In this document: piece by piece, positions 1 through 2,615 of the stretch
Layout: each line of letters begins with the position of its first letter
Position numbering within the stretch: position 1 is the first letter of the stretch
Source of the DNA: Baaleninema simplex PCC 7105
GTDB lineage: Bacteria > Cyanobacteriota > Cyanobacteriia > Cyanobacteriales > Geitlerinemataceae
Assembly: GCF_000332355.1 (NCBI RefSeq)
Contig: NZ_KB235958.1
Span: forward strand, 1,308,565-1,358,451
DNA length: 49,887 nt
Direction: 5' to 3'
Position numbers and translations under genes: made by a program
Notes under the pieces: generated by a model
The model's input: the letters and a program-made list of their open reading frames with translations, nothing else
Database searches by the model: none
Told to the model about the DNA's origin: nothing

Positions 1-753
1 GTAAGTCAGGTTTGCCTGATAGAAAGTCCCGAACATCCTGATTCCCTTCGCTTGGTTGCAAGGTTTGCAGGCAAGGCAGAGATTTGAAACGCGGTCGGAG
101 CCACCCTTTGAGCGGGCAAGAATATGCTCGACTTCTAACGGTACATTCTCAGCACCACAGTATGAACATTTCCGTTCCCATTTCTCTAGAAGATATTCTC
201 GGACTTCGTAGCCCTGCAATTCGCCTTGCTGATACTCAACCCCAGACACCTCGGGGTTCTGCATCTTTTGCATGTCAAACCGCACCAGTTCCATCGCAAT
301 TGAACCGATAGGTGCAAGCTTGCGGAGCCGATTCACCCAGGTCATCGTAGTCAAGACTCGGTGTTGCAAACTGGGTGCAAGCCAACCAGCAGGGCGTGCC
401 CGATTCAAGAATCGTGCCTGCCGATAGCGAGTTTTGCGATTCCGTCTACCGCGCCGCAATTGACGGCGGGATAGTAATGCAGCTTTAATCTGCTGCCCTC
501 GATGCTGCAACTGAGCACCAAAGATGATTTGATTCCCTTGTTTCAGGGCAATTCCAGTAACTTTAGAGCCTGGGTCTAACTTAAGTTCGACAGGCTCGGG
601 GTCAGCCTCAACCTCCTTTTTCAGGATGATAGTGAATGGATAACGGCGAAATACCGCCGCTTTCCCAACCTTGAGTAGTGACCGCGCTACCCCTGGCTTA
701 CAGGGTGTGAGCGGCTTACGGTTGGTATCTAGAACAAAAACATGGTTAGACAT
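1..753 (-). CDS. iscB: IscB RNA-guided HNH/RuvC nuclease (3' part outside window)
   Basis: The reverse strand is open from ATG at 753 to the window edge (251 codons, no stop), so the C-terminus is missing. Read directly: N-terminal PLMP-type segment (VFVLDTNRKPLTPCKP, residues 5-20); RuvC-I motif LDPGSKVTGIAL with Asp60; arginine-rich bridge helix about residues 96-118; RuvC-II strand SIAMEL with Glu155; HNH domain with CSYC (Cys196, Cys199), EVEH (His210), Asn224 and CLAC (Cys226, Cys229). RuvC-III would lie beyond the left edge. This order is that of IscB, the transposon-encoded ancestor of Cas9 that is guided by an omega-RNA; usual length is over 400 residues. All catalytic residues in the visible part are intact, so it may be active. 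A bare HNH homing endonuclease is unlikely because RuvC-I, bridge helix and RuvC-II are all present. Confidence 0.9.
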   Translation of the reverse strand, partial: MSNHVFVLDTNRKPLTPCKPGVARSLLKVGKAAVFRRYPFTIILKKEVEADPEPVELKLDPGSKVTGIALKQGNQIIFGAQLQHRGQQIKAALLSRRQLRRGRRNRKTRYRQARFLNRARPAGWLAPSLQHRVLTTMTWVNRLRKLAPIGSIAMELVRFDMQKMQNPEVSGVEYQQGELQGYEVREYLLEKWERKCSYCGAENVPLEVEHILARSKGGSDRVSNLCLACKPCNQAKGIRMFGTFYQANLTY

Positions 754-1005
754 TGTTGCGTCTCTTCTGATTGCCCGTAATGTTTGCTTCGCCAATGTTC
801 AGAGTCGGTACTTTCCAAATTGCACGTCCTTAAACCCCTTAGAGATGTTTAACAATTCAGTTCTAGAGCCTGGAACTAGCAAGCATTCCAGGGTAGGACT
901 TTAACTCTTGCTCTGAACGTAGCCAGTTAAGGCGATAGCTGGTCAGCTACCTGAAGGGGGGCACGAAGCCCCCGTGCTTCAGCCGGGGGTGCTGACGGTC
1001 TTTCC
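754..1005 (-). ncRNA. Probable omega-RNA (HEARO) region upstream of iscB
   Basis: The 250 bases upstream of iscB hold no ORF but contain strong GC-rich stem-loops, notably at 951-1000, where GGGGGCACGAAGCCCCC and an overlapping CCCCCG/CGGGGG stem can form alternative hairpins. In known IscB loci the omega-RNA (HEARO RNA) is transcribed just 5' of the ORF and its guide is taken from DNA outside the element's left end. By that rule the guide would lie on the reverse strand just beyond about position 1005. The exact ends are inferred from position and hairpins only. Confidence 0.6.
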
Positions 1006-1112
1006 CTCAATTCTTTACCCAACGCGATGACGAACGTAATACCGAACGCGATCGCGTGCGTTTGCCCCGATGATACCAACGGATTCAGAAAAGAGGGAAT
1101 TCGCACAAAAAA

Positions 1113-2615
1113 CTATACAGACGAGAGTTCGCGGGGTGTTTTCAAACTCTCAAAAAAGCCGTTCCAATCCTGAATTTTGCCGCGATCTGCCGAGGTTTGT
1201 TTCACCTCAAACGTTGCGTTCGTCGCTTCAGGACGGTCTAAGGCCCGCACGCAGAGTTCGGCGATATCGTCGCGGGTACATTGTCCCTTAATCGTGTCTC
1301 CCGTGGCGGCGACGAGAGGTTTTCCCCCCGGTTCTTCTGTCAGCGCACAGGGGCGAACGATCGCATAGGGAATCCCGCTGTTACGAAGGCTGTTTTCTCC
1401 TTCGAGTTTCCACGTCAGTAGTCCCCCCAACTGGTCGTTCATCCGCACCGCTGGCGGTTCTTCCTCTAAATTCAACCCCGGTTTACCGGGACGCGTCACC
1501 CCCGCCGAACTCACAATGACGAACTGCGGCACCGTTTCGCCACCGTAAGCACTTATCGATTCGAGTTCCAAGCGAAACGAACCGGGTTTGAACTTAGGAT
1601 TGAGCGCTCCGTCGAACTCGAACTTACTCAACATGATTTGAAATGCCGTGATGCGATGGGCGGGAAAGGGTTCGTCCGTCTCGAGGGTTTTGGCGCGAAA
1701 GGTGGGGACGAGGTCGGAAAACGGCACGCGTACGGTCATCGGGATGTTATACACCGTATCGAAGCCGTAAACGTAGCTGATACCGTCCCATTGGTTATCG
1801 CTGCGAAGAATGAATTTGTAGCGGTTTCCGTCTCCCTTCAGGCGCAGTTGAATGCCTTCGTATTGCGATAAGTCTAACGGCGTTTCGAGGACTTGGGTAC
1901 GCACGGAGGCGAAGCCGCCAGAATTGGCAGTAGACACGTTTCCACTAAAAACTGCCGCACCGGGAATTTGGTGAATGTCGCTGTTACTGACGCCGCCCAT
2001 GACCACGTCGTCTACGGCTCCCCAGAGGTCGTTGAAGCGAGGAATCGGTCGGGTGAAGTCAAAAATCGTTTTTTCGTTTTGGCGGCGGCAGAGGTAGGGT
2101 TTCGCGGCGTTGACGAGGTTTTCGATACCGCGATATTCGATATATTCGGGGGTTTCGACGACTTCGGGAAGGTAGAACTTCACTCCTTGATAGTATTTTT
2201 CGCGCGTGGGGGTGTCCCCTTCGACGGGCTGGACGCGGGTTCCGGTACAGCAGATGACGGCGCGAACGTTCTCGAACACTCGGAAATTCAAGGTTTCGGG
2301 AACGGTGATGTCGGCTTCGACGAGTTCGACGTCGGTTCCGAGGAGTTCCCGCCCCCGTCGGGCATCGCGAACGAGACCGCGAACGGGGATGTTGCGCTGT
2401 TGCAGTTGTTTGACGACGCGCTTTCCGACGCCTCCCGTCGCCCCGACGACGAGAACGAGACCGGGGGGTTTAGGGGGAGTCATGGCGGTGTCGTCGCGCA
2501 TACCGAGTTTTTTCTGTATCCATCTAAAGTTGCCGAGGAAGGGAATTTCGCCGAAGAATCCGAGGGTTTGTAGAAACCGCCCGAAATCCCAGGGTTCGCG
2601 GGGTGGGTTGGCCAT
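1113..2615 (-). CDS. SDR/NmrA-like Rossmann protein with an inserted CIA30 domain
   Basis: 500 residues. After a 45-residue leader, a Rossmann NAD(P)-binding start is seen (VLVVGATGGVGKRVVKQL, about residues 54-71), followed by SDR/NmrA-type strands (FENVRAVICCTGTRVQP). Residues of roughly 185-365 form a CIA30-type domain (FNDLWGAVDDVVMGGVSNS, then a jelly-roll pattern with YKFILRSD and FQIMLSKFE). The chain then returns to SDR-like sequence (FVIVSSAGVTRPG, YAIVRPCALTEEPGG, DIAELCVRALD). The CIA30 domain therefore sits inside the SDR fold. CIA30 proteins help assemble mitochondrial complex I; in cyanobacteria a role with NDH-1 or photosynthetic complexes is only an inference. No signal peptide, so probably cytosolic or thylakoid-surface. 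The gene stands alone; iscB's element lies about 110 bases beyond its 3' end. Confidence 0.85.
   Translation of the reverse strand: MANPPREPWDFGRFLQTLGFFGEIPFLGNFRWIQKKLGMRDDTAMTPPKPPGLVLVVGATGGVGKRVVKQLQQRNIPVRGLVRDARRGRELLGTDVELVEADITVPETLNFRVFENVRAVICCTGTRVQPVEGDTPTREKYYQGVKFYLPEVVETPEYIEYRGIENLVNAAKPYLCRRQNEKTIFDFTRPIPRFNDLWGAVDDVVMGGVSNSDIHQIPGAAVFSGNVSTANSGGFASVRTQVLETPLDLSQYEGIQLRLKGDGNRYKFILRSDNQWDGISYVYGFDTVYNIPMTVRVPFSDLVPTFRAKTLETDEPFPAHRITAFQIMLSKFEFDGALNPKFKPGSFRLELESISAYGGETVPQFVIVSSAGVTRPGKPGLNLEEEPPAVRMNDQLGGLLTWKLEGENSLRNSGIPYAIVRPCALTEEPGGKPLVAATGDTIKGQCTRDDIAELCVRALDRPEATNATFEVKQTSADRGKIQDWNGFFESLKTPRELSSV

What the first reader, a model, noticed from the sequence alone, without database searches (positions are those of the whole stretch)
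1..1010. IscB nuclease with omega-RNA region at the window edge
The visible 251 codons hold PLMP, RuvC-I Asp60, bridge helix, RuvC-II Glu155 and an intact HNH, i.e. a potentially active OMEGA nuclease. The 250-base non-coding, hairpin-rich upstream region fits the place of the omega-RNA, so the guide may be readable from the flank near 1005-1030.
Basis: partly seen in the sequence, partly recalled or inferred. Interest (0 to 1): 0.6.

Follow-up and report, generated by a model that had tools for sequence, protein, structure and literature searches.

The report
Broken IscB nuclease, guide RNA intact
At the window's left edge lies a known kind of mobile element: its guide-RNA gene looks complete, but its RNA-guided cutting enzyme is out of frame and then lost in a gap in the assembly, so this copy is probably dead unless a sister enzyme elsewhere in the genome uses its RNA.

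Summary
The element is real. Window 1-753 (-) is IscB (guided_IscB 384 bits, cut-off 175); 777-996 (-) is a full-length HEARO/omega-RNA (148.7 bits). The guide should be 997-1012, not 1005-1030, because this copy's homology to the others starts at base 996. "Potentially active" does not hold as assembled: a -1 frameshift near bases 40-56, just after the HNH, puts the last 14 codons out of frame. A 100-N scaffold gap follows, and the contig resumes at what aligns with the last IscB codon, so RuvC-III is unseen. The genome, probably a cyanobacterium's, holds 23 HEARO loci above cut-off and five unbroken, insert-free HEARO-linked IscB genes. One has an omega-RNA identical at 205 of 217 aligned bases and could serve the window RNA in trans (inference). 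One relative has both neighbour genes without the element. Verdict: a degraded member of a known family. In passing: short palindromic repeats sit in frame in 12 sister IscB genes and in TnpB-like genes.

The parts
1..753 (-). iscB, 5' part: PLTP motif, RuvC-I Asp60, bridge helix, RuvC-II Glu155, HNH; codons 238-251 out of frame
   Evidence: NF040563 384.1 bits; PF14239, PF01844; motif positions and the other frame
40..56 (-). -1 frameshift relative to the sister copy (exact base not fixed by the alignment), or an assembly error close to the contig edge
   Evidence: alignment with the sister copy; GNQDVRDFLSGKPDL in another frame
777..996 (-). HEARO / omega-RNA, full length
   Evidence: RF02033, 148.7 bits, model 1-211 of 211
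997..1012 (-). predicted 16-nt guide AATTGAGGGAAAGACC (read 1012 to 997)
   Evidence: homology of the window copy to other copies starts at HEARO base 1; guide length recalled from the IscB literature; only exact match in the genome is its own locus
1113..2615 (-). upstream neighbour on the same strand, CIA30/NAD(P)-binding protein; may supply the transcript that carries the guide (inference)
   Evidence: PF08547 148.5 bits, PF13460 101.4 bits

Best explanation
The feature is one of 23 above-cut-off IscB/HEARO loci of the IS200/IS605-associated OMEGA kind in a probably cyanobacterial genome. It stands between a CIA30-type gene and a DUF308 gene, all on the minus strand. Its omega-RNA gene is complete by model, and its guide is read from the 16 bases outside the element's left end. 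Its own IscB is frameshifted after the HNH and is probably not made as an active enzyme. When such elements work, the IscB-omega-RNA complex is thought to cut the empty donor site, [guide][TAM], after excision and so to favour keeping the copy (recalled from the OMEGA literature). Here that could happen only in trans, for instance with the enzyme of the sister copy (profile match C4:475804-476739). Shown: the RNA model match, the IscB domains, the frame break as assembled, the gap, an empty site in one relative, the sister copy. Inferred: transcription, trans use, target-adjacent motif GGAGG, cutting.
For: HEARO full length; IscB family and domains; frameshift; after the gap the contig resumes with GCC-TGA, which aligns with the end of the sister's IscB, followed by hairpins like its right end; 23 HEARO loci above cut-off; sister IscB with no stop inside, its omega-RNA 205 of 217 aligned bases identical; empty site in G002 between the same two gene families; Y1 transposase genes elsewhere in the genome, 4 above cut-off; right-end pentamers GATGG, GCTGG, TCTGG, AGAGG, GGAGG; the ATG of GATGG opens a frame of at least 70 codons at 9 of 13 distinct sites against 20 of 113 GATGG sites in the window (binomial p 6e-5), so that the pentamer looks like host target rather than element.
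Against: The frameshift lies within about 60 bases of a contig end, where consensus errors are common, so the gene may be intact in the cell. The C-terminal part is not seen. No sigma-70-like promoter was found in 740-1140; expression is unknown. The empty site rests on one relative: of the 14 relatives' loci compared, 13 did not show the DUF308 gene beside the CIA30-type gene and say nothing. The right-end boundary of the window copy was set by eye and by analogy; GGAGG is also a plausible Shine-Dalgarno of the DUF308 gene, which fits a host origin but proves no TAM. The GATGG test was thought of after the pattern was seen.
Confidence: 0.8

Rival explanations
1. The gene is intact and the frameshift is an assembly error at the contig edge; the element is a complete, active OMEGA system.
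For: The break lies beside a 100-N gap; 7 of 24 catalogued copies have an N run within the 1,700 bases downstream of the HEARO match, so the assembly is poor exactly here; the residues before the break are well conserved (82% to Phormidium willei over 234 residues).
Against: The assembled sequence is out of frame; other copies in this genome also decay by stop, frameshift or deletion, so decay is usual here.
Confidence: 0.2
2. A pure relic within the best explanation: neither RNA nor protein is used; the RNA is conserved only because the insertion is young.
For: Broken frame; no promoter-like site in 740-1140; a guide matching no other genomic place exactly.
Against: The HEARO match is the highest-scoring of the genome's 24 although its protein partner is damaged; an unbroken sister enzyme exists.
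Confidence: 0.45

Closest known systems
IscB-omega-RNA (OMEGA) systems, IS200/IS605-associated; HEARO RF02033
   Same: PLMP-RuvC-I-bridge helix-RuvC-II-HNH order, HEARO directly upstream, guide position at the 5' end; solved relatives OgeuIscB and others. No tnpA in the element, as is usual for HEARO nucleases (passages of PMC9755519)
   Different: This copy's frame is broken after the HNH as assembled and RuvC-III is unseen
Sister element in the same genome (HEARO C4:476775-476996, IscB profile match C4:475804-476739)
   Same: 80% DNA identity over query 1-996; omega-RNA 205 of 217 aligned bases
   Different: Open frame of 438 codons, other flanks and so another guide
IscB of Phormidium willei BDU 130791 (L108)
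   Same: 82% over 234 in-frame residues
   Different: Full length: it matches residues 1-423 of the sister IscB

Membership tests
IscB (OMEGA nuclease) | PLMP / RRXRR N-terminal region with RuvC-I Asp | tested here: met
   PF14239 256.9 bits; PLTP 14-17, Asp60
IscB (OMEGA nuclease) | HNH inserted in the RuvC fold, RuvC-II Glu | tested here: met
   PF01844 42.4 bits; Glu155; aligned to solved IscBs
IscB (OMEGA nuclease) | RuvC-III and C-terminal TAM-interacting part in the same frame | tested here: inconclusive
   -1 frameshift as assembled, then 100 N; only what aligns with the last codon and stop reappears
HEARO / omega-RNA RF02033 | Covariance-model match above the gathering score, directly 5' of iscB | tested here: met
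   148.7 bits, cut-off 83; 23 bases lie between its end (777) and the ATG (753)
HEARO / omega-RNA RF02033 | RNA expressed, bound by IscB and guiding cleavage | not testable with these tools
   no expression or binding data here; reported for other members (passages of PMC9755519)
IS200/IS605-type mobile element | Defined ends, empty site in a relative, own or trans TnpA | tested here: inconclusive
   left end exact; empty site in G002 but too divergent to align the junction to the base; no tnpA seen in the element, whose C-terminal part is hidden by the gap; 4 Y1 transposases above cut-off elsewhere

The most novel reading that the evidence does not exclude
In this genome short 48-base palindromic repeats (94 copies of the core) have gone in frame, at CTCAA sites, into two unrelated kinds of RNA-guided nuclease gene (IscB at two places, TnpB at one), and many guide-RNA loci, the window's included, now depend on the few undamaged IscB genes in trans: a population of orphan guides sharing a small enzyme pool.
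Probability: 0.2. Interest if true: 0.5.

Novelty: new member of a known kind. Interest (0 to 1): 0.25.

Why it matters
For the window itself, little: it corrects a tempting 'active nuclease' to a damaged copy with a usable-looking RNA. The genome as a whole matters a little more. It holds 23 HEARO loci but only five unbroken, insert-free HEARO-linked IscB genes, and a right-end pentamer ending in GG at the copies whose right end could be read, from which a target-adjacent motif can be predicted and tested. Its IscB paralogues also show at which places in-frame insertions have been kept.

Tried and rejected
Rejected: a full-length active IscB at this locus as assembled (frame break). Rejected: reading the 303-codon frame as real; it runs through 100 N of unknown true length. 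Rejected: hairpin-richness as evidence (z -1.77).

Led nowhere: other genomic targets of the guide. Nine further sites have two mismatches; the backwards control gave one, and this excess is unexplained. None of the nine is followed by one of the observed pentamers; the nearest is GATGA at L163. A same-genus comparison was not possible: one search examined one genome, the window's own. One search covered 148 genomes with the right flank and 102 matched; I compared only the 14 loci fetched from relatives (L064-L077), and only L064 has the DUF308 gene beside the CIA30-type gene.

The tree of the copies was used only for orientation. E14 sits on a zero-length branch in the clade of the E09/E16 pair although its N-terminal part is like the common type, so recombination between copies is likely, and I counted no insertion events on it. 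The site-1 pattern missed two variant inserts visible (E09, E17). Some rows list a neighbour's sequence: E20's under E02 and E14's under E22; I counted them once.

Literature: the listings (in-frame palindromes, cyanobacterial small repeats, Rickettsia elements) showed no title or abstract start on in-frame repeats in IscB or TnpB. The library is limited, so this is no proof of absence. Seen of papers: passages of PMC10969869, PMC9755519 and PMC8400943; otherwise listings only.

Full report
Observation. The minus strand of window 1-753 encodes 251 codons with IscB features. It scores 384 bits with NCBIfam guided_IscB (cut-off 175) and has Pfam RRXRR and HNH matches. Solved IscB structures are its best sequence matches in the PDB (residues 1-232 given). 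Upstream, bases 996-777 match the whole HEARO covariance model at 148.7 bits, the best of the 24 matches in the genome, of which 23 pass the cut-off. The free-energy fold alone is unremarkable (z -1.77).

Frame and gap. Compared with the nearest paralogue (HEARO C4:476775-476996; 80% DNA identity over query 1-996), the window copy lacks one base at about window 40-56. The last 14 visible codons are therefore out of frame, while another frame continues GNQDVRDFLSGKPDL, 14 of 15 residues as in that paralogue. The window begins right after a run of 100 N (L033 1901-2000), the usual sign of a scaffold gap of unknown length. On the other side the contig resumes with GCC-TGA, which aligns with the last codon and stop of the sister IscB, and then hairpins like the sister's right end. 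The RuvC-III part is thus unseen. The base loss may be real or an edge error.

Ends and guide. In the all-against-all comparison the window copy's homology to other copies begins exactly at HEARO base 1. Most copies start there or within a few bases, with unrelated flanks before it; three (E11, E12, E20) share a left flank, probably a duplicated or mis-assembled stretch, and E18's alignable part starts further in. The guide is then the 16 bases 1012-997, AATTGAGGGAAAGACC; the length of 16 is recalled from the IscB literature. It has one exact match in the genome, its own locus, and nine places with two mismatches (backwards control 1), none followed by an observed right-end pentamer (nearest GATGA at L163).

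Right end and target. Where the right end could be read, most copies stop at ..TTTTAGATGG and then diverge; others stop at GCTGG, TCTGG or AGAGG, and the window copy probably at GGAGG. I take the pentamer as host target. One search gives 15 GATGG rows; E17 and E20 repeat the right flanks of E07 and E02 and were dropped. At the 13 distinct sites the ATG opens a frame of at least 70 codons in 9, against 20 of 113 GATGG sites in the window (p 6e-5). The test was thought of after seeing the pattern. At the window locus GGAGG stands as a Shine-Dalgarno before the GTG of the DUF308 gene. These elements therefore seem often to land at translation starts. The boundary of the window copy was fixed by analogy only.

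Surroundings. The CIA30-type gene (1113-2615), the omega-RNA, iscB and the DUF308 gene all lie on the minus strand. With no promoter-like site in 740-1140, read-through from the CIA30-type gene is the simplest source of a transcript that includes the guide (inference). In a same-family relative, G002 (L064), homologues of the two genes lie about 150 bases apart with no blastn match to the HEARO query; the sequence is too divergent to place the junction to the base. Of the 14 relatives' loci compared, this is the only one that shows both genes side by side.

The genome-wide family. One search lists 43 matches to the IscB profile in the genome. Five HEARO-linked genes are unbroken and free of inserts (profile matches at C4:2026698, C4:3362006, C8:203448, C6:160231, C4:475804). 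Three copies (C4:3407015, 3409594, 3439355) lack profile region 131-266, which holds RuvC-II and the HNH. Y1 transposases occur at four places above cut-off, none beside the window element. Of 45 loci found with the sister protein in named genomes, 36 are cyanobacterial by record title.

In passing: in-frame repeats. By reading, 12 of the 23 above-cut-off loci have an IscB with a 48-base repeat (63, 78 or 168 bases with extra 15-base units; one irregular) inserted in frame at CTCAA: 9 after ETQL/ESQL, 9 after PPSL, 6 at both. Three (E03, E20, E21) carry another palindromic insert inside the HNH. The genome has 94 copies of the repeat core at up to 3 mismatches, 67 exact, against 0 for the backwards control. 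Of the first 30 exact copies listed (not a random sample), 6 lie in five IscB genes, 10 share the local peptide of one TnpB-like family (one, L082, scored: guided_TnpB 242 bits), and 14 are elsewhere and were not examined further. Among the 45 relatives' loci, three (L121, L134, L142) show in-frame inserts of other sequence (L151, at 26% identity, set aside). In-frame palindromic elements are known from Rickettsia (passages of PMC10969869). The window copy has none of these inserts in its visible part.

Conclusion. This is an IscB/HEARO element of a known kind, with an intact-looking guide RNA and, as assembled, a damaged nuclease. What it does in the cell, if anything, most likely depends on a sister enzyme.

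Noticed in passing
own genome, e.g. L046, L050, L048, L051 (IscB) and L082 (TnpB): A 48-base palindromic repeat, with optional 15-base tandem units, inserted in frame at CTCAA in IscB (two sites) and TnpB (one site); 94 copies of its core in the genome.
   Followed up: partly
L037, L054, L055: Three IscB copies (E03, E20, E21) with a second palindromic insert between the first two HNH cysteines (KCA...YCG).
   Followed up: partly
L055 (C4:3222626-3222955): A HEARO RNA of 330 instead of about 231 bases, with a palindromic insert of roughly 100 bases near its 3' end; a similar sequence starts at the right end of E13.
   Followed up: no
L041, L046, L051: IscB copies that lost the profile region holding RuvC-II and the HNH; L046 and L051 keep an open frame to the end, L041 runs into an N gap.
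   Followed up: no
C5:747577, C4:702508, C4:385511, C4:1110055 (L153-L156): Four RRXRR proteins of 382-384 aa; the only one examined (L153) has no HNH match, and no HEARO locus is listed at any of the four: IsrB-like.
   Followed up: partly
C4:3338230-3338460 region (L048): IscB copy E14 looks like a hybrid of two subfamilies, with an N-terminal part of the common type and a C-terminal part as in E09/E16.
   Followed up: no
L045, L046, L054 (E11, E12, E20): Three HEARO loci share the same left flank and so the same predicted guide; a duplicated stretch or an assembly tangle.
   Followed up: no
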